Made by a program: the position numbers and the translations under genes
From: Brevibacterium sp.
Lineage (GTDB): Bacteria; Actinomycetota; Actinomycetes; Actinomycetales; Brevibacteriaceae
DNA: 32,621 bases
NCBI GenBank assembly: GCA_031179165.1
Contig: JAPSIC010000018.1
Span: forward strand, 1-32,621
Direction of reading: 5' to 3'
In this document: one piece after another, positions 8,047 through 32,621 of the stretch
Numbering within the stretch: the stretch's first letter is position 1
Layout of the letters: every line of letters begins with the position of its first letter
The notes under the pieces: generated by a model
Database searches by the model: none
Told to the model about the DNA's origin: nothing
Seen by the model: the letters and a program-made list of their open reading frames with translations, nothing else

Positions 8047-9153
8047 TCAGAGGATCCGGCGGGCTCCGGAGAACTCGTCGCCCTTGTCCCAGGACTTCCA
8101 GTCGACGACCGAGACGTCCTTCGAGGCGTTGGGCGCGTGGATCATCTTCCCGTCGCCGATGTACATGCCGACGTGGTGGACCTTTCCGCTGCTCGTCGAG
8201 AAGAACAGCAGATCGCCGGGTTCGAGGTCCTTCTGCGAGACCTTCGTCCCGACCTTCGCCTGGTCCCCCGAATCCCGCGGGATGTCAATGCCGTGGGCGC
8301 GGTAGATGCTGTAGGTGAAGCCGGAGCAGTCGAAGCCGTATGGGGACACGCCGGCCCACAGGTAGCGCAGGCCCTCGAACTGCTCGGCCGTCCTGACGAG
8401 GTCCTCGCCCTTCGGCTTCGCCGGGTCCTGGTCGATGTCGTAGACGTCGATGTGCTCGGCGTCGACCCATGCTGCTCCTCCGCCGGGCAGGGCCACGCGC
8501 ACGTCCTCGACGTCCTGGGCGATGACGGGGAGTTCGACGTTGAAGGTGAGTTCGGCACCGGCGTCCTTGGTGAACTCGACGCCTTCGAGCTCGCTCTTGG
8601 GTTCGGTGACGACGGCTCGGGGCTGCTCGTCCTGGAGCTGGCCGAAGCGATCGTTCTCGACCAGCTGCTTCGTCGGCAGCCACCCGGGGTAGCCCTGCTT
8701 GTCCTTCGGCGTGGACTGGTCCCTCACGCTCACGCGTGCCCAGTCGCCGTCGACCTCATGGACGCTGACCTCCGAGCCATAGGGCGCCTGCGTCTCCATC
8801 TTCCCGGTCAGGCCTCGACGCACCTCGGTCTCCGACAGGTTCTCGTTCCAGGCATCGAGGTCGACGGGGTGTCCCAGTGCCGGCTCGTCCGCTTTGCGGG
8901 GTGCATCGGGTTCGGTCCACAGCGTGGCGACGGTGACATCGATGTAGGCGGTCTCGCCCTTCTCGATCGTCCCATCCGTGATCGCTTCGAGCTCTTGACC
9001 GGGAACGACCGCAGCTCCCAGGTCGGCTGCGGCGGGCACATCGACGGTGGAGGCGTCAGCGGCCGAGGTCAGATTGCCTGAGATCGCTGGAGCACCTGCG
9101 CCGAATACCAATCCGAGCCCAAGTGCCGTCGAAACAGCAGTTCTGGTACGCAT
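8047..9153 (-). CDS. secreted NlpC/P60 family cell-wall hydrolase with SH3-like regions
   Basis: Signal-peptide-like N-terminus (MRTRTAVSTALGLGLVFGAGAPAISG). C-terminal LRYLWAGVSPYGFDCSGFTYSIYRAHGIDIPRDSGDQA...DLEPGDLLFF...HHVGMYIGDGKMIHAP, with Cys and His of NlpC/P60. Confidence 0.9.
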   Translation of the reverse strand: MRTRTAVSTALGLGLVFGAGAPAISGNLTSAADASTVDVPAAADLGAAVVPGQELEAITDGTIEKGETAYIDVTVATLWTEPDAPRKADEPALGHPVDLDAWNENLSETEVRRGLTGKMETQAPYGSEVSVHEVDGDWARVSVRDQSTPKDKQGYPGWLPTKQLVENDRFGQLQDEQPRAVVTEPKSELEGVEFTKDAGAELTFNVELPVIAQDVEDVRVALPGGGAAWVDAEHIDVYDIDQDPAKPKGEDLVRTAEQFEGLRYLWAGVSPYGFDCSGFTYSIYRAHGIDIPRDSGDQAKVGTKVSQKDLEPGDLLFFSTSSGKVHHVGMYIGDGKMIHAPNASKDVSVVDWKSWDKGDEFSGARRIL

Positions 9154-9493: not shown

Positions 9494-10567
9494 TCAGCGC
9501 AGGAGCTCGGAGGCGAGGAGTTCGAGCGTCTGGATGCGGGCCGCGTCCGCGCGCAGGTCCTCGTCCTCCGTCGATCCGGTGACGGGCTGGATCATGATCT
9601 CGTCGACCTCGAACCGGTCGGCCAGCTCCTGCAGCTGCGCCGCCGCGGTCTTCGGGTCACCGATGATCCAGTTCGTCGACAGCTCCTCGGCGACCATCCG
9701 CTCCTGGTCGGTCATGACCGATCGGACGTCGTCACCAACGAGGCGCAGCGGCCCCATCGGCCCGCCGGTGCGCAGCCGGGCCATCTGCAGGAGGAACGGT
9801 TCGGACCGCAGGCGCGCCTCCTCGTCGGTCGGCGCGACCACGGCGTTGGCGGTGACGAAGGTGCGCGGTTCGGCCCCGTATGCGCCCTGGGAGAAGTTGT
9901 CGCGGTAGATCTTCATGGCCGTCGTCGCGCCGGCGGCGAAGTGGTTGGCGAAGACATAGGGCATCCCGAGTTCGGCTGCCAGTCGGGCCGAGTATCCCGA
10001 GGACCCGAGGAGCCATGGCAGCGGCTGGGTTCCGGGCACGGGGGCCGGGGTCGCGCGCAGGACGTGCTCGCGTCCGCCGTGCAGCGGGATGCGCACGCCC
10101 TCGGGCGTCATCAGGCTCAGGGTGTCGATGACGTGCTGCGGGAACTGCTCGACGGGATCGATGGTCTTCCCCTCCCGGTCGACCATCCGTCCCTCGCCGA
10201 GGTGCCCCCTCATCGCCGCCGAGGTGATCGGATCCGTGCCGGGTGCCCGTCCGATCCCGAGATCCACACGGTCACCGTAGACCGCCGAGAGCAGCGCGAA
10301 GAGCTCGGCCACGGCCAGCGGCGCGTGGTTGGGGAGCATGACCCCGCCGGAACCGAGCCGGATCCGCTCGGTGCCCTGACCGAGGTGCATGAGCTCGGCG
10401 CCCGGCATGGTCGAGGCGACGGACGGCATGTTGTGGTGTTCGGCAACCCAGTAGCGGGTGAATTCGAGCCGGTCGGCGGCCCGGACCAGCTCATGCGAGG
10501 ACGCGAGTGCATCGGCAGTGCTCTGTCCGACACGGACCGGCACGAGATCAAGAAGAGAAAGTTCCAT
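9494..10567 (-). CDS. LLM class flavin-dependent oxidoreductase (luciferase-like monooxygenase)
   Basis: MELSLLDLVPVRVGQSTADALASSHELVRAADRLEFTRYWVAEHHNMPSVASTMPGAELMHLGQGTERIRLGSGGVMLPNHAPLAVAE... Confidence 0.88.
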   Translation of the reverse strand: MELSLLDLVPVRVGQSTADALASSHELVRAADRLEFTRYWVAEHHNMPSVASTMPGAELMHLGQGTERIRLGSGGVMLPNHAPLAVAELFALLSAVYGDRVDLGIGRAPGTDPITSAAMRGHLGEGRMVDREGKTIDPVEQFPQHVIDTLSLMTPEGVRIPLHGGREHVLRATPAPVPGTQPLPWLLGSSGYSARLAAELGMPYVFANHFAAGATTAMKIYRDNFSQGAYGAEPRTFVTANAVVAPTDEEARLRSEPFLLQMARLRTGGPMGPLRLVGDDVRSVMTDQERMVAEELSTNWIIGDPKTAAAQLQELADRFEVDEIMIQPVTGSTEDEDLRADAARIQTLELLASELLR

Positions 10568-10594
10568 GTCCTCAAAACAGCCGCCTGACCAGGA

Positions 10595-11617
10595 TCATTC
10601 CTTGACCTTGGTCACGTCGCGGTCGTGCCGATTCCGCTCACGGCTGCGGGACCGGGCCCTGGGCAGCGCAGGCGCGGGCACTCGCCGGCCGACGACGTTG
10701 ACGATCTCGCCGATCCCCTCGATCGACATCCGCACCTCATCGCCGGGCTCCAGCGGCGGCTCGTCATGACCGAGTCCCCAGAGCTCGCCGAGGCAGCCCC
10801 CATTGCCGACCGTTCCCGAACCGAGCACGTCCCCGGCGACGACGACCGAGTTGCGGGAGGCGTAGGCGACGAGCTCGGGGAAGGTCCATCCCATGTTCGA
10901 GACCAGATCGGCACCAAGCAGCCGCCCGTTGACGCGCACCTCGGCGCGGGCGGCGAGGAAACCGTCGTCGAGACGGGAGTCGAGCTCGTCGGCGGTGACG
11001 ATCCACGGCCCCAATGTGAGCGCGAAGTCCTTGCCCTTGCAGGGCCCCAGGCGGACCTTCATCTCGCGCGCCTGCAGGTCGCGCGCCGACCAGTCGTTCA
11101 TCACGGTGTAACCGAAGATGCTCGCCTCGGCGGCGGCCACGTCGAGGTTCTTCCCCGGCGCACCGCCGATGACGGCTGCGAGTTCGAGCTCGTAGTCGAG
11201 GCGATGGGTGACCGGCACGTCGATCGTCTCGCCGGTGCCGCGCACCGTCAGCGGATTCGTGAAGTAGAAGGTCGGAGCCTCGTACCACTCGTCGGCGACG
11301 TGGCTCTTCCCTTCGACCCCCGCGCTGACTCCTTCGACGTGCTCTTCGAAGGCGACGAAGTCGCGCACCGTGCTCGGTACGACCGGCGACAGCAGCCGCA
11401 CCTCGGCGAGCGGGGTGGGGGTGACCTGTCCCGATGAGACGAGCGCGCGGCACTGCTCGTGCAGGTCAGCGGCGGTGCCGAGTCCCGACCGGAGCACATC
11501 GGACACCCGCAGCCCCTCGGGAAAGGGAATGACCCCCTCGGCGAGGACGAAGCCCTCGGCGATCCCGGGCTCGGTCGTCAGCTCATCGCTCGCGGCGATC
11601 CATCTCGCCAGCCTCAT
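10595..11617 (-). CDS. fumarylacetoacetate hydrolase (FAH) family protein
   Basis: 340 aa; ...DYELELAAVIGGAPGKNLDVAAAEASIFGYTVMNDWSARDLQAREM...CKGKDFALTLGPWIVT..., FAH fold motifs. Confidence 0.88.
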   Translation of the reverse strand: MRLARWIAASDELTTEPGIAEGFVLAEGVIPFPEGLRVSDVLRSGLGTAADLHEQCRALVSSGQVTPTPLAEVRLLSPVVPSTVRDFVAFEEHVEGVSAGVEGKSHVADEWYEAPTFYFTNPLTVRGTGETIDVPVTHRLDYELELAAVIGGAPGKNLDVAAAEASIFGYTVMNDWSARDLQAREMKVRLGPCKGKDFALTLGPWIVTADELDSRLDDGFLAARAEVRVNGRLLGADLVSNMGWTFPELVAYASRNSVVVAGDVLGSGTVGNGGCLGELWGLGHDEPPLEPGDEVRMSIEGIGEIVNVVGRRVPAPALPRARSRSRERNRHDRDVTKVKE

Positions 11618-12621
11618 ACCTCTGCCCTTTCCCTGAGCATCACCTCGGCGCTGCCGCCGAGGATCTTCTGCGTCACGTCATCCGAGAATCCCGCGGCGCG
11701 GACGAAGGCCACCGGGTCCTCGAGTCCCATGTCGAAGGGAAAATCGCTGCCGAGCACCACGCGGCCGGCGCCCGCGACCTCGACCAGGTGCCGCAGTCCA
11801 CCGTGGTCGTGGACGACCGTGTCGAACCAGAGCCGACGCAGGTAGGTCGAGGGCGGATGCTCGCACCGCTGCGCCTCGGGCCGGACCCGCCATGCCCGGT
11901 CGCTGCGGCCGATCGCGGTCGGCAGATAGCCTCCGCCGTGTGCGGCGACGATCCTGAGCTCCGGATGCCGGTCGAGAACTCCGGCGAAGATCAGGTGCGA
12001 CAGGGCGACGGCGTTCTCGACCGGTTGGCCCACCGTGTTCGAGAGGTAGAACCGGTCGAGGCGTTCGTCGAGCGAGCATCCGAAGGGGTGGATGAACACC
12101 ACGGTGCGCAGCTCGGCGGCTCGCGCCCAGAACGGTTCGAGCCTCTCGTCCGAGAGCTCCACGTCGCCGGCGAACGAGGAGATCTCGACCCCGGCCAGAC
12201 CGCGGCCGAGCACCGCGTCGTCGAGGTATTCGACGAGCCGTCCCGGGTGCTGCAGGGGAACGAGTCCCAAGCCGACGAGACGGTCCGGCGCCTGCGCCAC
12301 GTGCTCGGCGATGAGGCGGTTCGCCTCGCCTGCGATCCACGCGGCGAGGCCCTCGGGCGCCCACGGATAGAAGTGGTTCGGGGACGCGCTCACCCATTGC
12401 CGGTCGACTCCCTGAGCGTCCATCACGGCGAGACGCTCACAGACCTGCGTCAGCCTCGGGATTCGCGCCCCCACCATGCGACCGGAGATCTCCTGGCTCT
12501 CTGCACCGTTTCGTCGGTCGTCGAGAGCGGCGGCGTCCGCGAGGAGATCCGGGGCCCTGCGCTCCACCTCGGCGTGGAGGCCGGGCAGCAGCACGTGCGC
12601 ATGGACGTCGGTGACGGTCAT
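11614..12621 (-). CDS. amidohydrolase family protein (ACMSD / aromatic decarboxylase-like)
   Basis: MTVTDVHAHVLLPG (HxH), FIHPFG, VAAHGGGYLP, VLGSDFPFDMG metal-site motifs. ATGA overlap with the FAH gene. Confidence 0.85.
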   Translation of the reverse strand: MTVTDVHAHVLLPGLHAEVERRAPDLLADAAALDDRRNGAESQEISGRMVGARIPRLTQVCERLAVMDAQGVDRQWVSASPNHFYPWAPEGLAAWIAGEANRLIAEHVAQAPDRLVGLGLVPLQHPGRLVEYLDDAVLGRGLAGVEISSFAGDVELSDERLEPFWARAAELRTVVFIHPFGCSLDERLDRFYLSNTVGQPVENAVALSHLIFAGVLDRHPELRIVAAHGGGYLPTAIGRSDRAWRVRPEAQRCEHPPSTYLRRLWFDTVVHDHGGLRHLVEVAGAGRVVLGSDFPFDMGLEDPVAFVRAAGFSDDVTQKILGGSAEVMLRERAEV

Positions 12622-13751
12622 GCCGGCTCCGCCATCCGCTCCGCGATGCCGTGGATCAGTCCCCCGGCGTCGGCGTCCCTGTCCCCGTCGATCTGCCACT
12701 GCGCGAGCTGCGTCGACGCCTCGACGACAGCGGTCGCACGGGGCAGCCGCCGGTCATGGAACGAATCCCACAGGCCTTGGTCGACGACGTCGCGCTCGAG
12801 CAGCAGCTCGGTGAGGACGAACGCGTCCTCGAGTCCCTGGGCGGCACCCTGCGCGATCGTGGGAGGGCAGCTGTGCGCGGCGTCTCCGATGATCACGACC
12901 CGCCCCCGGTTCCAGGGCGCGTCGACGATGTGGGTGGTGAACCACGTGTAATTGGCATGCGCGCCCGCGGCCAGGTCGGCCCGGATCGACTCCCAGGGTC
13001 CGCCGTAGGCGCGCGACTCCTCGAGCATGATGCGGGTGGCCTCGGCATCGGTGATGCCGGTTCGGTCCTGCGCCTCCTCCACGAGGAAGGCGTACATCGT
13101 GTCGTCGCCGGTGGGAGTGTAGCCGGCGATGTAGACGGGTCCGCCGTAGTAGAGCTCGGTGCGTCCGACCTCAGCCGGGCGGGAGACGAAGGTGCGCCAG
13201 ATGCCCATGCCGTTGGGGCGGGGGCCCGCCTCGATTCCGATCAGCGTGCGCACCGTGGAGTTGAGTCCGTCGGCGCCGATGACGAGGTCGTAGGCTCCGG
13301 CCGATGCGCCACCGACGATCACCTCGACGGCGTCCCCGTGCGGGGACAGGGCGGTGATCTCAGAACCGAAGTGCACCTTGGCACCTGAGCGCTGGGCATG
13401 GTCGAAGAGGATCTTCGCGAGCGCCGGACGGGGCATGCCCATGGCTGCGGGATAGCCGGGTCCGCCGGTCTTCACGTCGGGCAGGGCCGCGACCACGGGG
13501 GCGTCGGGGCCGGGTGCTCGCAGGGTGAGGCCCTCGAAAGGGAACCCGGCGGCACGCACCTCCTCCCACACCCCGAGCCGGTCGAACACCCGCAGGGCGT
13601 TGCCCTGGAGGGAGATGCCCGAGCCGAGTGCACTCAGCTCGGGACTCGAGTCGAAGATGTCGACGCGCACTCCGGCCTTGGCGAGTTGGATCCCCGCCGC
13701 GAGTCCGGCGAAGCCGGCCCCCGCGACAGCGACTGTGCTGACTGCGGTCAT
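12618..13751 (-). CDS. FAD-dependent aromatic monooxygenase (salicylate hydroxylase-like, class A flavoprotein)
   Basis: GAGFAGLAAGIQLAKAG (GxGxxG), LVIGADGLNSTVR (DG motif), VVIIGDAAHSCPPTIAQGAAQGLEDA (GD motif). ATGA overlap with the amidohydrolase. Confidence 0.9.
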   Translation of the reverse strand: MTAVSTVAVAGAGFAGLAAGIQLAKAGVRVDIFDSSPELSALGSGISLQGNALRVFDRLGVWEEVRAAGFPFEGLTLRAPGPDAPVVAALPDVKTGGPGYPAAMGMPRPALAKILFDHAQRSGAKVHFGSEITALSPHGDAVEVIVGGASAGAYDLVIGADGLNSTVRTLIGIEAGPRPNGMGIWRTFVSRPAEVGRTELYYGGPVYIAGYTPTGDDTMYAFLVEEAQDRTGITDAEATRIMLEESRAYGGPWESIRADLAAGAHANYTWFTTHIVDAPWNRGRVVIIGDAAHSCPPTIAQGAAQGLEDAFVLTELLLERDVVDQGLWDSFHDRRLPRATAVVEASTQLAQWQIDGDRDADAGGLIHGIAERMAEPA

Positions 13752-13806
13752 GATGGTGAGAACCTCTCTGGTCGTGGCTGCTCGGTGGCGAAGTCCTGCT
13801 CGGCGG

Positions 13807-14805
13807 TCAGAGCAGGGCGACGGGGTTGATCGGGGACCCGACCGCCCCGGTGATGGGCAGCGGCGGTGCCGCCAGCAGGAAGTCGTAGCGGCCGAGCTCG
13901 GCGCAGACGATGCCCAGCTCGTCGAGATCCCACATCTCTCCGATCGTCAGCCCCAAGTTCGGGATCGCGATCTGATGCAGGGGCTGGAACGAGGGCACGT
14001 CGAATTCGTTGGGCCTGACTTCGAAACCCCAGGTGTCGGTCGCGACCGCGGCGATCTCGGTGCGGTGCAGCCACCCGGCGGTGGTGATGGACAGCCCCGG
14101 AGAGGCCCCTCCCGCATAGTCGTTCCACCCTTCGCGGCGGGCCCGGGCCAGTCGCCCGGTGCGGACGAGGACGATGTCTCCCCGCTCGACTCGTGAGGTC
14201 TCACCCTGAGCGGCGATCGTGGCTTCGAGGTCGGCAACCGTGATCGCGCAGCCGTCGTCGAGCTCGCCGGTATCGGGACGCAGGTGCCGGGCGACGTCGA
14301 GCAGCACTCCGCGGGACACGATCCGATCCCGGGCGTGCTCGATGCCGGTCACCTGATCGCCGTCGCTCGTCACCACCTCCCCGGCTCGGCGTCCGTTCCA
14401 GGCCCGGCCGTGATCGAATATGTGGCCGAGCCCGTCCCACTGGGTCGAGCACTGCAGCGGCATGGTGATGTAGTCATCGGCCCCGCCGATGCCGTGCGGG
14501 AAGCCCTGACTGCCGCGCTCGGCGTCGGTGCCGGTGTCGGTCATCGTGTGCACGGGATTGATGCGGCGACGCCAGCCCTTCTGCGGACCGTCGGTGTCGA
14601 AGGACTGTGCCAGGGACACGACTCGCCCCTCGGTGACGAGCCCGGCGGCGGCGATTCGCTTGGCCGCGTCGATGAAGTTCAGCGTTCCGAGGGTGTCCGC
14701 CTCACCCCACCGCCCCCAGTTCCGGAAGGCCTCTGCGCGGACGGCGATCTCGCCCTCGGGATCCTGGCGATCGATGTCGACCGCGTTCTCACTCGGCAGG
14801 CTCAT
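13807..14805 (-). CDS. cyclase family protein (kynurenine formamidase-like metal hydrolase superfamily)
   Basis: 332 aa; ...DDYITMPLQCSTQWDGLGHIFDHGRAWNG..., a variant of the HxGTHxDxPxH motif. Confidence 0.78.
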   Translation of the reverse strand: MSLPSENAVDIDRQDPEGEIAVRAEAFRNWGRWGEADTLGTLNFIDAAKRIAAAGLVTEGRVVSLAQSFDTDGPQKGWRRRINPVHTMTDTGTDAERGSQGFPHGIGGADDYITMPLQCSTQWDGLGHIFDHGRAWNGRRAGEVVTSDGDQVTGIEHARDRIVSRGVLLDVARHLRPDTGELDDGCAITVADLEATIAAQGETSRVERGDIVLVRTGRLARARREGWNDYAGGASPGLSITTAGWLHRTEIAAVATDTWGFEVRPNEFDVPSFQPLHQIAIPNLGLTIGEMWDLDELGIVCAELGRYDFLLAAPPLPITGAVGSPINPVALL

Positions 14806-15776
14806 GAGAGGCTCCCCGTCGTCTCGGCCATGCAGCGCACGGTCTGGGTGCCGAGGCCGGCGATCGTTCCGGTCATGACATCGCCGTCGCGCAGGAAGCG
14901 CTTCCAGTGCTGTCCGTTGCCCGCCGGACTGCCGGTGAGCACGAGGTCGCCGGGCAGCAGCGGCAGCGTCTGGGAGGCGGCGGAGACGATGGCGGCGACG
15001 TCGAAGATGAGCTCCGCTGTCGTCGCATCCTGCATCACCTCGCCGTTGAGCTCGAGGCGAACGTTGAGATCGCTCGGGTCGACGAAGGGCGCGGGGACGA
15101 GGAACGGGCCGGTCGGGAGGAATCCGGGGGAATTCTTCGCCCGGAACCAGTCAGCGCCGATGTCGCCGACGTCTCCGGGGAACACCAGATCCCTCGTCGT
15201 GATGTCATTGACGATCGTGTAGCCCGCGACGTGGTCGAGCGCATCGTCGGCGTCGACCCTGAAGGCTTCGCGCCCGATCACGGCCGCGAGCTCGAGCTCC
15301 CAGTCGTGGACGTCGCTCGCCGCCGGCAGGACCAGGGGCTCGTCGTCGCCGACGACGCACTGCGGAAGCCCGATGAAGACGAAGGGACGACCGCTGTCGG
15401 CACGGTTATCCATGATCCTCTCCGCCTCGGCCCGGATCTCCTCGGGTGAGCGGTCATCGGCTCGGGCGGTGAGACCGCCCATGATCAGCTGCACCACATG
15501 GCTGCGGTAGTTGGCGCCGGCCTGGAGAACCTGCCCGGGCGCGACCGGTGCCACCAGTGTGACCTCGGGCATCGGGGTCCACGGTCCCTCCGCCTCGGCG
15601 AGCCGCGCCAACCGGTCCCAGTCGGGCTCGGCCAGGAAGTCGTTGAGCCCGGCCGCGCCCAAGTCCTCGTCGTCGAGCGGGCGGATCCGAGCGCCGACGA
15701 CGAGGCCGAGTCGAACGTCCTCACCCTGCCGATACCGTGCCAGCGCGTAAGGGGCGGTGGGAAGTGGGGTGGTCAT
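14802..15776 (-). CDS. fumarylacetoacetate hydrolase (FAH) family protein
   Basis: 324 aa; QAGANYRSHVVQLIMGG..., DWELELAAVIGREAFRVDADDALDHVAGYTIVNDITTRDLVF..., GDLVLTGSPAGNG. ATGA overlap with the cyclase gene. Confidence 0.9.
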   Translation of the reverse strand: MTTPLPTAPYALARYRQGEDVRLGLVVGARIRPLDDEDLGAAGLNDFLAEPDWDRLARLAEAEGPWTPMPEVTLVAPVAPGQVLQAGANYRSHVVQLIMGGLTARADDRSPEEIRAEAERIMDNRADSGRPFVFIGLPQCVVGDDEPLVLPAASDVHDWELELAAVIGREAFRVDADDALDHVAGYTIVNDITTRDLVFPGDVGDIGADWFRAKNSPGFLPTGPFLVPAPFVDPSDLNVRLELNGEVMQDATTAELIFDVAAIVSAASQTLPLLPGDLVLTGSPAGNGQHWKRFLRDGDVMTGTIAGLGTQTVRCMAETTGSLS

Positions 15777-15818
15777 GATTCCTCCATGGTGGCGATTGCG
15801 GTTCTGCCTGCGACTGCT

Positions 15819-16829
15819 TCAGCCGTGGACCGTGTACGGGTTGAGCAGCGCCTCCCGGATCTCCTCCGGCACGCCTTCCTCGGTCGCGCTCGGTCCGTCC
15901 GCCGGCGGGAACGACTCCGTCATCGACATCGGCATCGCCCCATTGCGATAGAAGTTGCTCGAGCCCAGCGAGGGCTTCCAGGTGTTCGGCTCCCAGTCCG
16001 GGACGTAGTTGCGGTAGCCGCCCGTGTTGAGCTCGATGCGCAGGCTCGACGGCTCCCGGTAGTAGAGGAAGGTCTGCTCACCGATGCCGTGGATGGACGG
16101 CCCGTACTCGATCGGCACCCCGTGCTCCATCAGGGTGTCGGCCGCGATGAGCAGCTCCTCCCGGGTGTCGACCCAGAAGGCGTAGTGGTTGATCCGGCCG
16201 CCGCGGCTGGAGCCGTCGAGGACGACGCCGAGGTCGTGGGACTTCTCGTTGGTCGTGAGCACCGAGAACACCGAGATCGGCGCCTCGTCGAGTTCTGTGC
16301 GGGCCATGATGCGGAACCCGAGCACCTCGTTGTACCACTTCGCGAAGCCGTCGACGTCGCTGGTGGCGATCGTGACGTGGTCGAGCTGACGAGGTGCACC
16401 GGCGATCTTCGACCGCCTCTCCGGCCGGTCCGGGTAGATGGATGCGCAGCCGCGCTCCGCCTGGTGGCGCTGAACGTCCCAGTGCAGCGTCATGGAGTGA
16501 CCCCAGGGCCCGGTGAACCGGTAGGCGCGACCGACCCGGTGGCCGTCGAACCACTCTCCGGTCACACCGGCGGCCTCGATCCGCCTGACCGCTTCGTCAA
16601 GGGCCTCTGCGCTCGAGGTCCGCCATGCCATCGTCTCGAGCGCCGGCTCGTGTCCCGGGACGATCACGAGCGAGTACGCGTAGTAGTCGCCCCAGCAGCG
16701 CAGGTAGACGCGGCCGCCTTCCCGTGCGACCTCGGTGAGGCCGACCTCGGTCCTGTAGAAGTCGACGGAGGCCTCGACATCCGGGGTGGTGATCGCGACG
16801 TAGGAGAGGTGGGAGAGCAGATTGATCAT
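15819..16829 (-). CDS. VOC family extradiol ring-cleavage dioxygenase (catechol 2,3-dioxygenase-like)
   Basis: From ATG 16829: MINLLSHLSYVAITTPDVEASVDFYRTEVGL...; second VOC domain LDHVTIATSDVDGFAKWYNEVLGF...INHYAFWVDTREELLIAADTLMEHG...SLRIELNTGGYRNYVPDWEP, with plausible His/His/Glu ligands. Confidence 0.88.
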   Translation of the reverse strand: MINLLSHLSYVAITTPDVEASVDFYRTEVGLTEVAREGGRVYLRCWGDYYAYSLVIVPGHEPALETMAWRTSSAEALDEAVRRIEAAGVTGEWFDGHRVGRAYRFTGPWGHSMTLHWDVQRHQAERGCASIYPDRPERRSKIAGAPRQLDHVTIATSDVDGFAKWYNEVLGFRIMARTELDEAPISVFSVLTTNEKSHDLGVVLDGSSRGGRINHYAFWVDTREELLIAADTLMEHGVPIEYGPSIHGIGEQTFLYYREPSSLRIELNTGGYRNYVPDWEPNTWKPSLGSSNFYRNGAMPMSMTESFPPADGPSATEEGVPEEIREALLNPYTVHG

Positions 16830-17028: not shown

Positions 17029-18003
17029 GTGGACACCAGACCATCCCTGGCCAGGCTGGACCTCAACCTGCTCGTCTCGCTGGATGCCCTCCTGCGCGAG
17101 CGCAGCGTCACGCGTGCCGCGCAGCGGCTGATGCTCAGTCAGCCCGCGCTCTCGGCCGCATTGTCGCGACTGCGCTCGCACTTCAAGGATCCGCTCCTCG
17201 CCCGGCGGGGCAACTCCTATGAGCTCACGCCGCTCGCGCTGCGCCTGTCCCACCAGGTCCCGGCGGCGCTGGAGATGGCTCGCCGGGTCTTCGACAGCCA
17301 GACCGACTGGTCACCGGAAACGTCGAACCGGGAGTTCTCCATCCTCGGCTCGGACTACGGGTTCGTCACCACGGGGCAGCTCGTCTCGCGGCTCGCGGTC
17401 AGACAGGCACCCGACATCCGCTTCCACTTCCTCCTGCACACCACGTCCATCGTCGATGATGTCCGTGAGCATCTCCGCACGGTCGACGGCATACTGCTGC
17501 CCCACGGTCACATCACCGACCTTCCCCACGTGGAGCTGTGGACCGATCGCTGGGTGATCATCGCCGCCGACGACAATCCGGCGGTCGTCGACGGCCTGAG
17601 CCTCGAGACCCTCGCCCGGTCGCCCTGGGTGTTCACGTATCAGTCTCGCACCGCCTTCACCTCCGCCACCCAGCAGCTGAGGTCGCTCGGGCTGGAGCCG
17701 CGCGTCGAGGCGATCGTCGAGACCTTCCTCTCGCTGCCTCCGTTCGTCCAGGGAACCCCTCGGCTGGGCCTGCTCCAGGAGCAGGCCGCACGGCTGATCA
17801 GCCATATGCCGGGGATCACGGTGCTGCCCCCGCCGTTCGAGGCACCGCCGATCGTCAATGCCCTGTGGTGGCACCCCGTGCACGAGCACGACCCGGAGCA
17901 CATCTGGATGCGCGAGCAGTTCCGTGAGGCCACCCGTGAACTCCGTGCGGCCTCACGCGAACTGCGTGCGGCCTCACGCGAACTGCGTGGGGCCAAGGAC
18001 TGA
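17029..18003 (+). CDS. LysR family transcriptional regulator
   Basis: GTG start. LARLDLNLLVSLDALLRERSVTRAAQRLMLSQPALSAALSRLRSHFKDPLLARRGNSYELTPLA winged HTH. Divergent from the VOC operon. Confidence 0.93.
   Translation: MDTRPSLARLDLNLLVSLDALLRERSVTRAAQRLMLSQPALSAALSRLRSHFKDPLLARRGNSYELTPLALRLSHQVPAALEMARRVFDSQTDWSPETSNREFSILGSDYGFVTTGQLVSRLAVRQAPDIRFHFLLHTTSIVDDVREHLRTVDGILLPHGHITDLPHVELWTDRWVIIAADDNPAVVDGLSLETLARSPWVFTYQSRTAFTSATQQLRSLGLEPRVEAIVETFLSLPPFVQGTPRLGLLQEQAARLISHMPGITVLPPPFEAPPIVNALWWHPVHEHDPEHIWMREQFREATRELRAASRELRAASRELRGAKD
17923..17985 (+). repeat. 21-bp tandem repeats at the 3' end of the LysR gene (last two copies identical)
   Basis: CGTGAGGCCACCCGTGAACTC, CGTGCGGCCTCACGCGAACTG, CGTGCGGCCTCACGCGAACTG; encodes REATREL-RAASREL-RAASREL. 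Confidence 0.9.
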
Positions 18004-18093: not shown

Positions 18094-19341
18094 TCAGATT
18101 CGGGGCACGGCCGCTCCGGTCTCCGGCGTCTCCTCGGTGGCGACCAGCGTGGCCCGACGCAGCGGGATCATCACCAGGACCGCGACGACGACGGCGGCCA
18201 CTCCCACGACGCCGACCGCCGTGGTCAGCTCGCCCGTGATGCCGGCGAGAGCGCCGACGAGCAGCGGGGTGAGGAACTGACCGAGGAAGAATGAGGCGGT
18301 CCACCAACCGGTCACCCGGCCGCGCTCCTCGAAGCGGGTGGAGGCCACGACCCAGGTCAGCAGGGAGGGCAGCAGCAGGCCCGAGCCGAACGAGGCGATC
18401 ACTGCACCGACGACGACTCCCGGCAGGGATCCGATTCCCCAGATGACGAGCATGCCGACCGCCTGCAGCAGGAAAGCCCACGGCAGGAGCGAACCCGGCC
18501 TGATCTTCGGCAGGCGCGAGAAGGTGAAACCGGCGATCGCCGTCGCGAGCGACGCGATGGCCGCCACTGTGCCGATGACGCGAGTGTCGCCGGCGCCCAC
18601 CCCGGTTCCCACCACCAGATAGCTGACCTCGATGATGAGAACGTAGAAGGTGAACCCGCCGAAGACCGTGACGAGCAGGGGAACGACGATGCGTCCCCAG
18701 GGAATGCGGACCTTCTCCCCCAGCCCTGCGCGACGATCTGCGGCCTCGCTCGGGCTCGGCTCCCAGAGCGCGAAGATCATCGGGACGGCGATGAGAAGGC
18801 TGATCCCATACACCCAGAACGGCGTCTGCCACCCGGCGACGCCGAGTGCGCCGCCGAGAGCGATGAAGACGGTCGCCGCCAGTGTCGTCGACACGGTCTG
18901 CAGGCCCAGGTACTTCGTTCGGCTCCTGCCGTGGAAGTAGTCGACGATGAGCGTGGTGCAGACCGTCATGATGCCGGCTTCGAACACGCCGATGAGGACG
19001 CGGGTGATGAGGATCGCGTGGAGCCCGTCCAGCCAGACGGGGGCGGTGCCGACGAACGCATAGGCGAGCATGGTGATGATCAGCAGGGTCTTGCGGCCCA
19101 GCCGGTCGACGATCTGGCCGGCGAACGGCGCGAAGACCGCCACCATCAGAGCGGGGATCGCCACGATCATCGGCACCAGGATCGCGGCTCCCGGCACCTC
19201 GGCGAAATGCGCCGACAGCTGCGGGAGCACGGGGGTGATCAGCACGGATCCCAGGACCGGCATGCAGCTGCCGGCGAGCAGCAGCATGCCCTGCAGGGCG
19301 CCCGCCCGTCTGCCGCGAGCGTCAGTGGTGGTCGTCGTCAT
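18094..19341 (-). CDS. MFS transporter
   Basis: From ATG 19341: MTTTTTDARGRRAGALQGMLLLAGSCMPVLGSVLITPVLPQLSAHF...FAGQIVDRLGRKTLLIITM..., 12-TM-like hydrophobicity. Confidence 0.9.
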   Translation of the reverse strand: MTTTTTDARGRRAGALQGMLLLAGSCMPVLGSVLITPVLPQLSAHFAEVPGAAILVPMIVAIPALMVAVFAPFAGQIVDRLGRKTLLIITMLAYAFVGTAPVWLDGLHAILITRVLIGVFEAGIMTVCTTLIVDYFHGRSRTKYLGLQTVSTTLAATVFIALGGALGVAGWQTPFWVYGISLLIAVPMIFALWEPSPSEAADRRAGLGEKVRIPWGRIVVPLLVTVFGGFTFYVLIIEVSYLVVGTGVGAGDTRVIGTVAAIASLATAIAGFTFSRLPKIRPGSLLPWAFLLQAVGMLVIWGIGSLPGVVVGAVIASFGSGLLLPSLLTWVVASTRFEERGRVTGWWTASFFLGQFLTPLLVGALAGITGELTTAVGVVGVAAVVVAVLVMIPLRRATLVATEETPETGAAVPRI

Positions 19342-19413
19342 CGGGAACTCCTTTGTTCTCAGTGGGTTGACGAAAGTCAAACATCGAAGGAGAACATCAG
19401 GGAAGACGAAATC

Positions 19414-19446
19414 ACTGATACGCACATAGATGGGACTGATACCCAC
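19414..19446. repeat. two 12-bp direct repeats ACTGATAC(G/C)CAC, 21 bp apart, in the MFS/ALDH intergenic region
   Basis: ACTGATACGCAC at 19414-19425 and ACTGATACCCAC at 19435-19446. Confidence 0.7.
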
Positions 19447-19539: not shown

Positions 19540-21000
19540 ATGTCCGAGTTCGATTCCCCCCTCTTCATCAACGGTCGGGAGCGCTTCACCGACGACACGC
19601 TCGAGATCGCCGATCCCGGCAAGCCCGGTCGCATCGTCGGCACCGCCGCGGCGGCGAGCGCAGACGACGTCGCAGACGCGGTCGCAGCCGCCGAAGCGGC
19701 CTTTCCGGCATGGTCGGCCCTGACCGGCCCCGAACGCGCGAGCGCGATGGCCGCGGCGATCCAGGGCATCGCCGACCACCGCGACGACGACGCCGCGATC
19801 CTGTCGCAGGAGAACGGCAAGGTCGTGCATGAGGCCTGGGTCGATTCCCTCGTCTTCGAGCTGCGCTGGAACCTCGCGCTGGAGCACCGCGACGACGTCG
19901 ACGCGACCGAGCAGCTTCACCCGGTGCCGGGAGCGATTCCCAACTCGACCAGCATCTCCTATCAGCCGATGGGCGTGGTCACGATCATCGTGCCCTTCAA
20001 CTGGCCGATCGCGATCCTCGGCGCGGCGCTGCCCCACGCGCTCCTCGCCGGCAACACCGTCATCGTCAAGCCGCCGCCGACGGCTCCGCTGGCAACCGCT
20101 CGAGTCGTCCAACGGGTCGCCGAGGCGCTGCCGGCGGGCGTGCTGCAGGTGGTCACCGGCCGCGACGCCGACCTGTCGGGCCTGATCTCGAACGAGAAGA
20201 TCGCGAAGGTCGGCTTCACCGGCAGCGTGCGCGGCGGGAAGACGATCATGGAGCTCGCCTCGAAGTCGCTCACCCCGGTCACTCTCGAGCTCGGCGGCAA
20301 CGACGCGGCGGTCTTCCTCGCAGACGCTCTGCTGGACGACGAGCACCTCGACAGGCTGTTCGGCGCCGTCTACGACACGACCGGTCAGATCTGCATGAAC
20401 GCCAAGCGCATCCTCGTGCACCGCTCGCGCATGGATGAGCTCGTCGAGGGGCTCGAGTCCCGGCTCTCCCAGGTCGTGCTCGGCTACGGCCTCGACGAAT
20501 CCCAGGGCACGACCATGGGCCCCCTGCACTCGCCCAACCAGAAGGCGTTCGTGGACGATCTCATCCGCGAGGCGAAGGAGGCGGGCGCCGACGTGCGCGA
20601 GTTCGGCGAGCTGCCCGGCGGCGACCTCGAGGGCGGCAACTTCGTGAGACCGGCGCTGGTGGTGGACGTGGACCCCGCACTGCGCGTCGTCACGGAGGAG
20701 CAGTTCGGGCCGGTGGTTCCCGTCATCCCGTTCGACAGCGAGGAGGAGGCGATCCGTCTCGCCAACGACACCTGGGCCGGCCTCGGGAACTCGGTGTGGA
20801 CCGCGGACCCCGCCGCCGCACAGCGCGTCGCCCCGCAGCTGCAGTCGGGCTATGTGTGGGTCAACGACCACGGCGCCACCCGTCTCGACCTGCGCGCCCC
20901 CTTCGGCGGGGTCAAGCAGTCGGGCATCGGGCGCGAACAGGGAATCCACGGGGTGCGTGACTTCCAGCAGCCGCACGCGGTGTCGGTGATCACGGAGTAG
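19540..21000 (+). CDS. aldehyde dehydrogenase family protein (candidate aromatic aldehyde dehydrogenase)
   Basis: MGVVTIIVPFNWPIAILGAALPHALLAGNTVIVKPPPTAPL, VTLELGGNDAAVF (Glu), DTTGQICMNAKRILVH (Cys), PFGGVKQSGIGREQG. Confidence 0.93.
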   Translation: MSEFDSPLFINGRERFTDDTLEIADPGKPGRIVGTAAAASADDVADAVAAAEAAFPAWSALTGPERASAMAAAIQGIADHRDDDAAILSQENGKVVHEAWVDSLVFELRWNLALEHRDDVDATEQLHPVPGAIPNSTSISYQPMGVVTIIVPFNWPIAILGAALPHALLAGNTVIVKPPPTAPLATARVVQRVAEALPAGVLQVVTGRDADLSGLISNEKIAKVGFTGSVRGGKTIMELASKSLTPVTLELGGNDAAVFLADALLDDEHLDRLFGAVYDTTGQICMNAKRILVHRSRMDELVEGLESRLSQVVLGYGLDESQGTTMGPLHSPNQKAFVDDLIREAKEAGADVREFGELPGGDLEGGNFVRPALVVDVDPALRVVTEEQFGPVVPVIPFDSEEEAIRLANDTWAGLGNSVWTADPAAAQRVAPQLQSGYVWVNDHGATRLDLRAPFGGVKQSGIGREQGIHGVRDFQQPHAVSVITE

Positions 21001-21043
21001 GCCGTCCGGCGGCCACCGGCCCGGCACGCCCCCGATCCGAATT

Positions 21044-21074
21044 TACCTATGTACATTCCCTACATGCATAGGTA
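21044..21074. promoter_or_regulatory. 31-bp dyad operator candidate overlapping the predicted promoter of the MTHFR-purU-demethylase operon
   Basis: TACCTATG-tacattccctacatg-CATAGGTA (perfect 8-bp arms) with inner ATGTA...TACAT. Possible -35 TGTACA (21050-21055) and -10 TATGCT (21073-21078), 17-bp spacing. Confidence 0.65.
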
Positions 21075-21122
21075 TGCTGGGGATCAGGACGCAAGGAAGC
21101 GCCGTGAAAGGAAGGCTCCGCT

Positions 21123-21974
21123 ATGACGACTCCCGCTGCACTCAAGCTGCTCGACAACTTCTCGTTGGAGATGACCGGCAAGGACATCCCCGGCCTCGAA
21201 GAGGCCAGCCGGGCGATCCCGCAGGGCACCAAGATCAACGTCACCTTCCTCGGCAACGAGGACCTCGAGATGCGCGTGGCCGCGGCCAGGCGGGTGAAGG
21301 AACTCGGCTTCGTGCCCGTCCCCCACATCTCCGCGCGACGCCTGCAGTCGCAGCAGCAGCTCGAGGAGTTCCTCGCAGCGCTGCACGGGGTCGACGCCAC
21401 CGACCACGTCTTCTGCGTCGGCGGTGACCCCGCGACGCCGGAGGGCCCCTACCCTGACTCCCTGTCCGTGATCCGCTCCGGCGTGCTGCAGCAGTACGGC
21501 GTCAGGGAGGTCTCGATCGCCGGCTACCCCGAGGGCCATCCCGACATCTCCGCCGAGGTGCTGTGGCAGCACCTCGAGGACAAGTCGGCGGCGCTGGCGG
21601 AACAGGGCCTCGACGCCGTCGTGCTCACCCAGTTCGCGTTCGACGCCGAGGCGGTGCTCAAGTGGGTGCTCGAGGTGCGTGACCGCGGGATCGATTCCGA
21701 GATCCGCGTCGGTACCCCCGGCCCCGCAGGCATCAAGCGACTGCTCGGCTACGCCCGCCGCTTCGGCGTCGGCACGAGCGCCGGGATCGTCAAGAAGTAC
21801 GGCTTCTCCCTCACCAACCTCATGGGCACCGCCGGCCCCGACCGCTTCGTGGGCGAGCTCGGCGACCTGCTCGCAGCCGATGCTCGCAGCGGTCGGGTGC
21901 GCACGCACTTCTATACCTTCGGCGGTCTGCTCGCGACCGCCGAATGGGCCCAGGCGTTCGGCACGGGTCACTAG
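21123..21974 (+). CDS. methylenetetrahydrofolate reductase (MTHFR) family protein
   Basis: 283 aa; FSLEMTGKDIPGL..., INVTFLGNEDLEMRVAAARRVKELGFVPVPHISARRLQS..., GGDPATPEGPYPDSLSVI, SIAGYPEGHPD. Confidence 0.9.
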   Translation: MTTPAALKLLDNFSLEMTGKDIPGLEEASRAIPQGTKINVTFLGNEDLEMRVAAARRVKELGFVPVPHISARRLQSQQQLEEFLAALHGVDATDHVFCVGGDPATPEGPYPDSLSVIRSGVLQQYGVREVSIAGYPEGHPDISAEVLWQHLEDKSAALAEQGLDAVVLTQFAFDAEAVLKWVLEVRDRGIDSEIRVGTPGPAGIKRLLGYARRFGVGTSAGIVKKYGFSLTNLMGTAGPDRFVGELGDLLAADARSGRVRTHFYTFGGLLATAEWAQAFGTGH

Positions 21975-21983
21975 GGAGCGCCG

Positions 21984-24318
<2,335 letters not shown>

Positions 24319-31661: not shown

Positions 31662-32621
31662 CTACGTCCGACGGTAGCTCTCGCGGGCGAACCGGGAGTA
31701 CGGTGCCGGCGCCACTCTCGCACGCACACGCACCTGCCGGTGGCGTTCGACGGTCGGCTTGGTCGTGTTCGGGTCCTCGCCCCACAGCACCTCAACCTCG
31801 GTGCCGGGCTCGGCATGGGCGGGATCGAGGCTGGCCAGCGACAGGAAGGTCTGCTCATTCACGCTGTAGCCCACGTCGTGGGACAGTCCGACAGCCTCGT
31901 CGCCGCGGCGCACGAGGTCGACCTGGTGCTGGCCATAACGGGCCTTCGGCAGTTCGAGGAACTTCGCCGGCAGGCCCCCTTCGTACGCGGAACGCTGGAT
32001 CGCCGCGACATCCTCCGGATCCCAGACGAGCGACACCTTGACCCGGTGCGTCCCAGCGGCGCGACGCTCGAACGCGGCTCTGCCGATGAAGTCATGGTCG
32101 AACCTGACCGTGCGCCCGTAGCCGAGCTCGTACGGGGAGAGATAGTAGTCCTCGATGTCCTCGGATTCGAACGAGCCGGCCAGCGACCCGAGGCGGGCCG
32201 CCGGCAGCCAGGCGAGATACTCCTCGCTCCCCTGTCCCGTGTAGATCGCGGGAAGCGGCGACGGCACCCACGCCGACTCGAGGTTCGCCGATGAGTAGGC
32301 GCGCGAACCGACGAGCGTCAGGCCGAATGCGTCCCCCGCCTCGAGCAGCGCCTCGCGCACCCGCTCCCCCTCGGCCCACGGCCCGAACAGCTCGAAGCCG
32401 GGCATGCCCGCCATCCCGTGCCGGAGCGAACGGACGGTGACCCCGGCGATCTCGAAGGTCTCCATGCCGAAGAACCGCGTCTCGGGCGCGGGGTGGCCCG
32501 TCACCCTCTCGAGCAGCGGCAGGGCGTTCGGTCCCTGCAGCTCGTACCGATAGAGCTTCGGATCCCCACCGCCGGCCGCCGCCCGCGCGATCGAGTTCGG
32601 GTCGCGGTCGAAGCTCACGTC
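31662..32621 (-). CDS. second GcvT-fold LigM/DesA-like THF-dependent O-demethylase, N-terminus beyond window edge
   Basis: Closely parallels the 22912-24318 protein: YELQGPNALPLLERVTG...FFGMETFEIAGVTVRSLRHGMAGMPGFELFGPW...[26 protein letters not shown]...[39 protein letters not shown]. Confidence 0.85.
   Translation of the reverse strand, partial: DVSFDRDPNSIARAAAGGGDPKLYRYELQGPNALPLLERVTGHPAPETRFFGMETFEIAGVTVRSLRHGMAGMPGFELFGPWAEGERVREALLEAGDAFGLTLVGSRAYSSANLESAWVPSPLPAIYTGQGSEEYLAWLPAARLGSLAGSFESEDIEDYYLSPYELGYGRTVRFDHDFIGRAAFERRAAGTHRVKVSLVWDPEDVAAIQRSAYEGGLPAKFLELPKARYGQHQVDLVRRGDEAVGLSHDVGYSVNEQTFLSLASLDPAHAEPGTEVEVLWGEDPNTTKPTVERHRQVRVRARVAPAPYSRFARESYRRT

What the first reader, a model, noticed from the sequence alone, without database searches (positions are those of the whole stretch)
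9494..16829. Seven-gene ring-cleavage operon with unknown substrate and two FAH-family enzymes
VOC dioxygenase, FAH, cyclase, FAD monooxygenase, amidohydrolase, FAH and LLM oxidoreductase are all on the minus strand, three junctions with 4-bp ATGA overlaps and the others with gaps of roughly 27-55 bp. Two distinct FAH proteins plus a cyclase-type hydrolase and an ACMSD-like enzyme suggest several hydrolysis or decarboxylation steps after cleavage. The terminal LLM monooxygenase is unusual for a meta-cleavage pathway.
Basis: partly seen in the sequence, partly recalled or inferred. Interest (0 to 1): 0.6.

Follow-up and report, generated by a model that had tools for sequence, protein, structure and literature searches.

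The report
Actinobacterial operon for flavone ring degradation
Six co-directed genes, conserved across many soil and plant-associated actinobacteria, look like a ring-cleavage pathway that takes apart the A-ring of plant flavones; this would be the missing step after bacteria strip the sugar from plant C-glycosides, although no reaction has been tested at the bench.

Summary
In detail: seven minus-strand genes at 9494-16829, with three ATGA overlaps and gaps of 42, 55 and 27 bp. Only six form the conserved unit (VOC, FAH1, cyclase, FMO, amidohydrolase, FAH2). The LLM gene is adjacent only here and in one 96%-identical Brevibacterium relative.

Comparison of 79 relatives (mostly Microbacteriaceae) gives the best clues. 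FAH1 plus amidohydrolase is never found with a C-C hydrolase of the dihydroxypseudooxynicotine-hydrolase type (58 versus 14 loci, none with both; at least 5 switches on the tree). The cyclase is likewise exchanged for an MBL-fold hydrolase (67 versus 4; at least 3 switches). In two thirds of loci the operon sits beside C-glycoside deglycosidase genes.

Best explanation: A-ring meta-cleavage of 5,7-dihydroxyflavone-type aglycones. FMO hydroxylates and VOC cleaves to an acylpyruvate. FAH1 plus amidohydrolase removes pyruvate and CO2 (the alternative hydrolase would release oxaloacetate). Cyclase opens the pyrone lactone. FAH2, which carries the fumarylacetoacetase motif, gives a benzoate plus acetoacetate. 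The carbon balances. This resembles the fde (naringenin) and ifc (isoflavone) pathways but differs in its lower half. The substrate is inferred, not shown. I rate it a new variant of a known kind.

The parts
15819..16829 (-). VOC (vicinal oxygen chelate) extradiol ring-cleavage dioxygenase, 336 aa; proposed A-ring cleavage enzyme
   Evidence: PF00903 E 3.6e-24; nearest NCBIfam catechol 2,3-dioxygenase 241.8 bits, below its cut-off of 320.2; iron ligands H151, H215, E266 and second-sphere H198 and H247 conserved across 82 rows
14802..15776 (-). FAH1, FAA-hydrolase family, 324 aa; proposed acylpyruvate (2,4-diketo acid) hydrolase
   Evidence: PF01557 E 2.7e-56; best NCBIfam 2,4-didehydro-3-deoxy-L-rhamnonate hydrolase E 7.5e-42, below cut-off; HpaG and 8gsr L-2,4-diketo-3-deoxyrhamnonate hydrolase among solved relatives
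13807..14805 (-). CYC, PF04199 cyclase-family hydrolase, 332 aa; proposed pyrone lactonase
   Evidence: PF04199 E 9.2e-23; 5ibz E 1.5e-55; model (mean pLDDT 70) matches 5ibz then isatin hydrolases, E about 1e-7; invariant QWDGLGH motif; replaced by an MBL-fold hydrolase in four relatives
12618..13751 (-). FMO, FAD-dependent aromatic hydroxylase, 377 aa; proposed A-ring hydroxylase
   Evidence: PF01494 E 6.2e-38; PRK06847 subfamily 382.7 bits, above cut-off 372; model pLDDT 89 matches aromatic hydroxylases such as 3-hydroxybenzoate 6-hydroxylase and MHPCO
11614..12621 (-). AMH, ACMSD-like amidohydrolase, 335 aa; proposed decarboxylase of the pyrone carboxylic acid
   Evidence: PF04909 E 2.3e-37; ACMSD structures E 2e-43, LigY C-C hydrolase E 1.6e-15; conserved DVHAH, HPFG, AHGGGY and GSD metal-site motifs; ATG at 12621 overlaps the FMO stop
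10595..11617 (-). FAH2, FAA-hydrolase family, 340 aa; proposed aroylacetoacetate (3,5-diketo acid) hydrolase
   Evidence: PF01557 E 1.8e-48; best NCBIfam fumarylacetoacetase E 5.3e-21, below cut-off; keeps the fumarylacetoacetase stretch NDWSARDxQ...LGPxxxKxFAxTxxPWIVT, largely invariant in 71 rows
9494..10567 (-). LLM-class oxidoreductase (MsnO8 family), 357 aa; adjacent in this lineage, not part of the conserved pathway
   Evidence: TIGR03558 321.3 bits, above cut-off 166.95; absent beside the operon in all other-genus loci and in three of four other Brevibacterium carriers
17029..18003 (+). Divergent LysR-type regulator, probable activator of the operon
   Evidence: PF00126 and PF03466; LysR orthologue beside the operon in about 23 of 79 relatives; the others mostly carry a ROK regulator
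18094..19446 (-). MFS transporter, candidate uptake or efflux protein for the pathway
   Evidence: PF07690 E 4.4e-40; orthologue near the LysR-type operon in several relatives, for example L004, L005, L011, L065, L068

Best explanation
The six-gene operon encodes an aerobic meta-cleavage pathway for the A-ring of plant flavonoid aglycones, most likely 5,7-dihydroxyflavones. Inferred steps: (1) FMO hydroxylates the A-ring next to the 7-OH (C8). (2) VOC cleaves C8-C8a; because C5 carries an oxygen, the product is a 2-hydroxy-4-pyrone with an acylpyruvate side chain, R-CO-CH2-CO-COOH. (3) FAH1 hydrolyses this to R-COOH plus pyruvate. (4) AMH decarboxylates R-COOH to R-H, a 4-hydroxy-6-aryl-2-pyrone. 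(5) CYC opens the lactone to 5-aryl-3,5-dioxopentanoate. (6) FAH2 cleaves that to an aromatic acid (4-hydroxybenzoate, vanillate or syringate according to the B-ring) plus acetoacetate. In relatives, one DHPON-hydrolase-like enzyme (ABH) replaces steps 3-4 by releasing oxaloacetate directly, and an MBL-fold hydrolase replaces CYC. Shown here: gene content, conservation, the exchange pattern and the genomic context. Inferred: substrate, regiochemistry and every reaction.
For: (a) FAH1+AMH and the C-C hydrolase ABH never co-occur: 58, 14 and 0 loci, with at least 5 switches on a VOC+FMO tree. ABH matches DHPON hydrolase 2jbw (E 7e-19) and the Ayg1-like structures. The model explains why two genes are exchanged for one. 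(b) CYC is exchanged for an MBL-fold hydrolase, 67, 4 and 0 loci, at least 3 switches; the nearest solved relatives of CYC with a known function are isatin hydrolases, which open a fused ring. (c) L039 and L064 lack both CYC/MBL and FAH2, as expected if these act in sequence. (d) FAH1 resembles a 2,4-diketo acid hydrolase and FAH2 fumarylacetoacetase, a 3,5-diketo acid hydrolase. (e) C-glycoside deglycosidase or C-glycoside oxidase genes lie beside the operon in 53 of 79 loci; in the 15 ROK-type genomes checked, the 4-6 CGDB genes found lie almost entirely near it. (f) Genes for the predicted products are nearby: 3-oxoacid CoA-transferase in 5 of 79 loci (expected about 0.7), mostly with a thiolase, and 4-hydroxybenzoate hydroxylase plus protocatechuate dioxygenase in L005 and L034. 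Next to the window operon lie a LigM demethylase and C1 enzymes. [quoted passage not shown] IfcA and IfcB do the same for daidzein (PMC11069340). (h) Carbon balance for apigenin: C15 = C7 + C4 + C3 + CO2, or C7 + C4 + C4.
Against: No enzyme activity is shown, and no sequence of FdeC, FdeE, IfcA or IfcB was available, so homology of the oxygenases to them is untested. The FMO's nearest solved relatives act on small (hydroxy)benzoates and pyridines, not flavonoids. No FdeD-like Rieske protein or IfcD-like cupin is in the window operon. The window's own genome has no detectable CGDB or C-glycoside oxidase (genome 88% complete), so the C-glycoside link rests on relatives. Deleting the ABH-like gene in Variovorax (locus 59470) did not stop daidzein degradation. 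The CoA-transferase could serve 3-oxoadipate rather than acetoacetate. The CYC model is poor around its proposed active site. Acylated phloroglucinols, chromones or xanthones would also have the required ring.
Confidence: 0.58

Rival explanations
1. The operon degrades another phloroglucinol-type aglycone released from C-glycosides, such as an acylphloroglucinol or dihydrochalcone, chromone, xanthone or anthraquinone (for example kermesic acid from carminic acid). Ring hydroxylation, extradiol cleavage and diketo-acid hydrolysis would be the same, but the aryl acid would differ.
For: C-glycoside deglycosidases of Microbacterium act on oxidised carminic acid (PMC8563793), and mangiferin is oxidised by a related soil enzyme (PMC10646112). 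The operon clusters with such genes.
Against: The lower module (lactonase-like CYC plus fumarylacetoacetase-like FAH2), with CoA-transferase/thiolase and 4-hydroxybenzoate genes nearby, fits the C-ring remnant of a flavone best. Many LysR-type operons, including this one, have no deglycosidase nearby.
Confidence: 0.2
2. A meta pathway for a simple phenolic acid or lignin monomer (vanillate, syringate or gallate type, via methoxyhydroquinone or trihydroxybenzene), with the flanking LigM and DesA genes as part of the same route.
For: LigM at 22912-24318 is above its cut-off; a PurU and MTHFR-like pair is alongside; the adjoining contig carries a 4-oxalomesaconate-tautomerase-like and a PIG-L gene. 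FMO folds like decarboxylative hydroxylases among others.
Against: No LigM gene lies near the operon in any other-genus locus. A monocyclic substrate does not need two diketo-acid hydrolases, a decarboxylase and a lactonase, and gives no role to nearby C-glycoside deglycosidases.
Confidence: 0.12
3. A hydroxypyridine or other N-heterocycle pathway, like kpi in Arthrobacter (FMO, an amidohydrolase-family dioxygenase, alpha/beta hydrolase and FAA hydrolase).
For: FMO's best sequence hits in the PDB are 6-hydroxynicotinate 3-monooxygenase and MHPCO. The kpi cluster has an FMO, an amidohydrolase and an FAA hydrolase (PMC7356986). ABH resembles a nicotine-pathway enzyme.
Against: No amidase or deaminase is in the operon. 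KpiC belongs to PF01979 and cleaves the ring itself, whereas AMH is PF04909 and a VOC dioxygenase is present. Linkage is to C-glycoside genes.
Confidence: 0.05

Closest known systems
fde operon, naringenin degradation, Herbaspirillum seropedicae SmR1
   Same: FAD hydroxylase then a dioxygenase acting on the flavonoid A-ring; A-ring carbons lost putatively as oxaloacetate to leave an aryl lactone (PMC10755750); LysR regulation (general knowledge).
   Different: FdeE works with the Rieske protein FdeD (PMC8552027), absent here. The lower half here is a cyclase-family hydrolase plus a fumarylacetoacetase-like hydrolase; removal of the A-ring remnant is by FAH1 plus an ACMSD-like enzyme instead of a single hydrolase. 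Host phylum differs.
ifc cluster, isoflavone degradation, Variovorax
   Same: Group A FMO (IfcA, 8-hydroxylation) and glyoxalase-family dioxygenase (IfcB) followed by a 2-hydroxy-4-pyranone intermediate; cluster contains a DHPON-hydrolase-like gene, as in the alternative variant of this operon.
   Different: Variovorax uses cupin enzymes IfcD1/D2 on the pyranone; none in this operon. The Deinococcus aetherius relative (L084) has both the alpha/beta hydrolase and two cupin genes.
CarA/CarB/CarC and PsG3Ox/PsCGD C-glycoside deglycosylation systems
   Same: C-glycoside oxidase, CGD alpha and CGD beta (PF19906) genes cluster with this operon in most Microbacterium, Leifsonia and Subtercola relatives.
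   Different: Those systems remove the sugar; this operon is proposed to degrade the released aglycone. They are absent from the window's own genome as far as searched.
Homoprotocatechuate (hpa) meta pathway
   Same: VOC dioxygenase and FAH/HpaG-family enzymes.
   Different: HpaD score 146.4 against cut-off 321.4; FAH1 124.3 against 276.4 for HpaG C-terminal; no CHMS dehydrogenase, hydratase or aldolase in the operon.
Homogentisate pathway fumarylacetoacetase
   Same: FAH2 keeps the NDWSARDxQ...LGPxxxKxFAxTxxPWIVT stretch and is proposed to cleave an analogous 3,5-diketo acid.
   Different: Scores 75 against cut-off 375.3; no homogentisate dioxygenase or maleylacetoacetate isomerase in the operon.

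Membership tests
fde/ifc-type flavonoid A-ring meta-cleavage pathway | FAD-dependent (group A type) aromatic hydroxylase beside a VOC extradiol dioxygenase | tested here: met
   together in one operon across dozens of genomes
fde/ifc-type flavonoid A-ring meta-cleavage pathway | Hydroxylase and dioxygenase homologous to FdeE/IfcA and FdeC/IfcB | not testable with these tools
fde/ifc-type flavonoid A-ring meta-cleavage pathway | Rieske partner FdeD or cupin IfcD | tested here: not met
   No such gene among the operon genes of the window; two cupin genes lie near the Deinococcus relative
fde/ifc-type flavonoid A-ring meta-cleavage pathway | Acts on the flavonoid A-ring | not testable with these tools
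   Needs enzyme assay
fde/ifc-type flavonoid A-ring meta-cleavage pathway | DHPON-hydrolase-like alpha/beta hydrolase in the cluster | tested here: not met
   None in window or own genome; present in 14 related loci in place of FAH1+AMH
Homoprotocatechuate (hpa) pathway | HpaD equivalog dioxygenase | tested here: not met
   TIGR02295 146.4 bits against 321.4
Catechol 2,3-dioxygenase (equivalog) | Score above TIGR03211 cut-off | tested here: not met
   241.8 bits against 320.2
Type I (VOC) extradiol dioxygenase superfamily | His-His-Glu iron triad in a double VOC-domain protein | tested here: met
   H151, H215, E266 conserved; PF00903
Fumarylacetoacetase (equivalog) | Score above TIGR01266 cut-off | tested here: not met
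   75 bits against 375.3; local signature stretch kept
ACMSD-like amidohydrolase family (PF04909) | Metal-site histidines and aspartate of ACMSD | tested here: met
   DVHAH, HPFG, AHGGGY, GSD motifs conserved; ACMSD hits E 2e-43; decarboxylase activity itself not testable
C-glycoside deglycosylation cluster | PF19906 CGDB and C-glycoside oxidase genes in the same genome | tested here: not met
   None found in own genome, while the same family search finds CGDB in 17 of 20 relatives

The most novel reading that the evidence does not exclude
An unreported actinobacterial flavone-mineralisation pathway with two interchangeable routes for removing the A-ring remnant (acylpyruvase plus decarboxylase, or one oxaloacetate-releasing C-C hydrolase) and a fumarylacetoacetase-like enzyme that splits aroylacetoacetate into a benzoate and acetoacetate. 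Together with the neighbouring deglycosidases found in relatives it would complete aerobic breakdown of plant C-glycosylflavones.
Probability: 0.5. Interest if true: 0.75.

Novelty: new variant of a known kind. Interest (0 to 1): 0.6.

Why it matters
Flavones and their C-glycosides are abundant in leaves, roots and cereal straw, and C-deglycosylation by Microbacterium and Arthrobacter is known only up to the release of the aglycone; [quoted passage not shown] If the model holds, a widespread actinobacterial operon supplies that missing half, explains how these bacteria feed on plant flavones, and provides a fumarylacetoacetase-like enzyme, an ACMSD-like decarboxylase and a cyclase-family lactonase with new substrates. 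The two-for-one gene exchange makes a sharp biochemical prediction: pyruvate plus CO2 from one variant, oxaloacetate from the other.

Tried and rejected
LLM gene as a pathway member: rejected, not conserved beside the operon. Homoprotocatechuate and simple catechol pathways: rejected on curated cut-offs. Kpi-like 4-hydroxypyridine pathway: considered because of FMO similarity; gene content differs. C-glycoside oxidase, CGDB and ABH in the window's own genome: searched, not found. A conserved LysR box in the VOC-LysR intergenic region was looked for with a simple palindrome scan and shared words; nothing convincing beyond the ribosome-binding region. Literature searches for a published flavone operon of this type in actinobacteria or Microbacterium found none in the open-access library; subscription papers are not held. 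Structure prediction of CYC gave a confident outer fold but a poor model around residues 69-155, so no active-site argument is made from it. The FMO fold search was uninformative about substrate. Fisher tests on the exclusivity tables ignore shared ancestry, so counts of switches on a tree are used instead. A first neighbour clustering was spoiled by antisense shadow reading frames and was redone with a codon-position filter.
Full report
Observation. The correct amidohydrolase start is 12621, giving the FMO/amidohydrolase ATGA overlap. Families were confirmed with Pfam and NCBIfam. A LysR gene diverges at 17029-18003, followed by an MFS transporter gene.

Where the operon lives. The window belongs to a Brevibacterium-like genome: a relative in the same genus matches the Brevibacterium permense contig by length and position. 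Orthologues of the VOC gene (78-96% identical) occur in only 4 of 56 other genomes of the genus, while close orthologues (76-89%) are common in Microbacteriaceae. A VOC+FMO tree puts the window inside a Microbacteriaceae clade next to a Microbacterium metagenome bin. This suggests horizontal transfer into this lineage.

The conserved unit has six genes. Relatives were chosen on the VOC protein alone, and in most of them VOC, FAH1, cyclase, FMO, amidohydrolase and FAH2 follow in the same order. The LLM gene is beside the operon only in the window and in the 96%-identical relative G007; it is missing from three other Brevibacterium carriers and from every other-genus locus.

Exchangeable modules. 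Among 79 loci, 58 have FAH1 and AMH without ABH, 14 have ABH without FAH1 and AMH, and none has both; six have neither and one is truncated. ABH resembles 2,6-dihydroxypseudooxynicotine hydrolase and Ayg1-like enzymes, which I know as C-C bond hydrolases. Parsimony on the tree needs at least five switches. CYC is present in 67, an MBL-fold hydrolase in four, both in none, with at least three switches. L039 and L064 lack CYC or MBL and also FAH2. This splits the operon into an upper module (FMO, VOC), a middle module (FAH1+AMH or ABH) and a lower module (CYC or MBL, FAH2).

Genomic context. In 53 of 79 loci, genes for C-glycoside oxidation and deglycosylation lie within about 10 kb; representatives were confirmed as GMC oxidoreductase, PF19906 CGDB and sugar-isomerase-like proteins. 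In the 15 ROK-type genomes tested, the 4-6 CGDB genes found are nearly all within a few tens of kilobases of the operon; three of the five LysR-type genomes tested have none (contig identity was judged from accession order). The Deinococcus aetherius plasmid carries VOC (67% identical), a cyclase-family protein, an FAH2-like protein, ABH, FAD enzymes and two cupins near a C-glycoside-oxidase-like gene. 3-Oxoacid CoA-transferase genes lie within 10 kb in five loci, against about 0.7 expected from their density in 20 genomes; the thiolase next to one scores best as acetyl-CoA acetyltransferase, though below that model's cut-off. 4-Hydroxybenzoate hydroxylase and protocatechuate dioxygenase genes follow the operon in Naasia lichenicola and Agromyces terreus. 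The window genome itself has a PobA-like gene (393.9 bits against cut-off 538.7) and a CoA-transferase gene elsewhere.

Mechanism. A 5,7-dihydroxyflavone hydroxylated at C8 and cleaved at C8-C8a gives a 2-hydroxy-4-pyrone with an acylpyruvate side chain, by established extradiol chemistry. An acylpyruvate hydrolase plus a decarboxylase, or one C-C hydrolase releasing oxaloacetate, would remove that side chain; these are the two middle modules. The remaining 4-hydroxy-6-aryl-2-pyrone is the lactone of a 3,5-diketo acid. A lactonase followed by a fumarylacetoacetase-like enzyme would give a benzoate and acetoacetate; this is the lower module. FAH1 scores best with a 2,4-diketo acid hydrolase and FAH2 with fumarylacetoacetase, both below the models' cut-offs; FAH2 keeps that enzyme's signature stretch. 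Naringenin degradation in Herbaspirillum gives the matching aryl lactone with putative loss of oxaloacetate (PMC10755750), and daidzein degradation in Variovorax gives the matching 2-hydroxy-4-pyranone (PMC11069340). Each enzymatic assignment here is inference; gene content, conservation, exclusivity and context are observed.

The neighbouring island. To the right of the operon, shared with G007, are an aldehyde dehydrogenase, an MTHFR-like protein, PurU, LigM (871.7 bits, cut-off 580), a branched-chain-type ABC transporter and a second demethylase cut by the window end. The adjoining contig has another LigM-like gene, a 4-oxalomesaconate-tautomerase-like gene (434.8 bits, cut-off 440), a PIG-L gene and a VOC paralogue. 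This looks like vanillate, syringate or gallate catabolism. It would suit methoxylated flavones such as tricin, whose B-ring would give syringate, but no other-genus locus shows LigM beside the operon, so that link is speculative.

Limits. The window operon has no C-glycoside genes near it, so here it probably serves free or O-glycosylated aglycones.

Verdict. The finding is real and more interesting than a generic unknown operon: a conserved, modular ring-cleavage pathway most likely for flavone A-rings, a new variant of the fde/ifc kind.

Noticed in passing
window 19540-24318 and 31662-32618; continues on L111 (contig C194): Methoxy-aromatic island: aldehyde dehydrogenase, MTHFR-like protein, PurU, LigM, a second LigM/DesA-like gene; on the adjoining contig another LigM-like gene, a 4-oxalomesaconate-tautomerase-like gene, a PIG-L gene and a catechol-2,3-dioxygenase-like VOC paralogue.
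   Followed up: partly
L006, L007, L042, L058 and other ROK-type loci: The C-glycoside deglycosidase beta-subunit genes of these genomes (4-6 each) are nearly all clustered around the flavone-type operon, beside a ROK regulator and a Gfo/Idh/MocA oxidoreductase.
   Followed up: partly
L084 (Deinococcus aetherius plasmid pDAETH-1), 10322-25023: A distant relative of the cluster on a Deinococcus plasmid: C-glycoside-oxidase-like GMC gene, VOC 67% identical, a different cyclase-family protein, FAH, DHPON-hydrolase-like protein, FAD oxidoreductases, with two cupin genes further on.
   Followed up: partly
L033, L043, L051, L060: VOC orthologues (82-84% identical) sitting among C-glycoside deglycosidase genes without the rest of the operon.
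   Followed up: no
L071 and L047: Operons missing both middle modules (no FAH1, AMH or ABH within the fetched stretch); L071 also lacks CYC but has a CoA-transferase and thiolase 1-3 kb away.
   Followed up: no
window 8047-9153: NlpC/P60 cell-wall peptidase with SH3 domains, unrelated to the operon.
   Followed up: no
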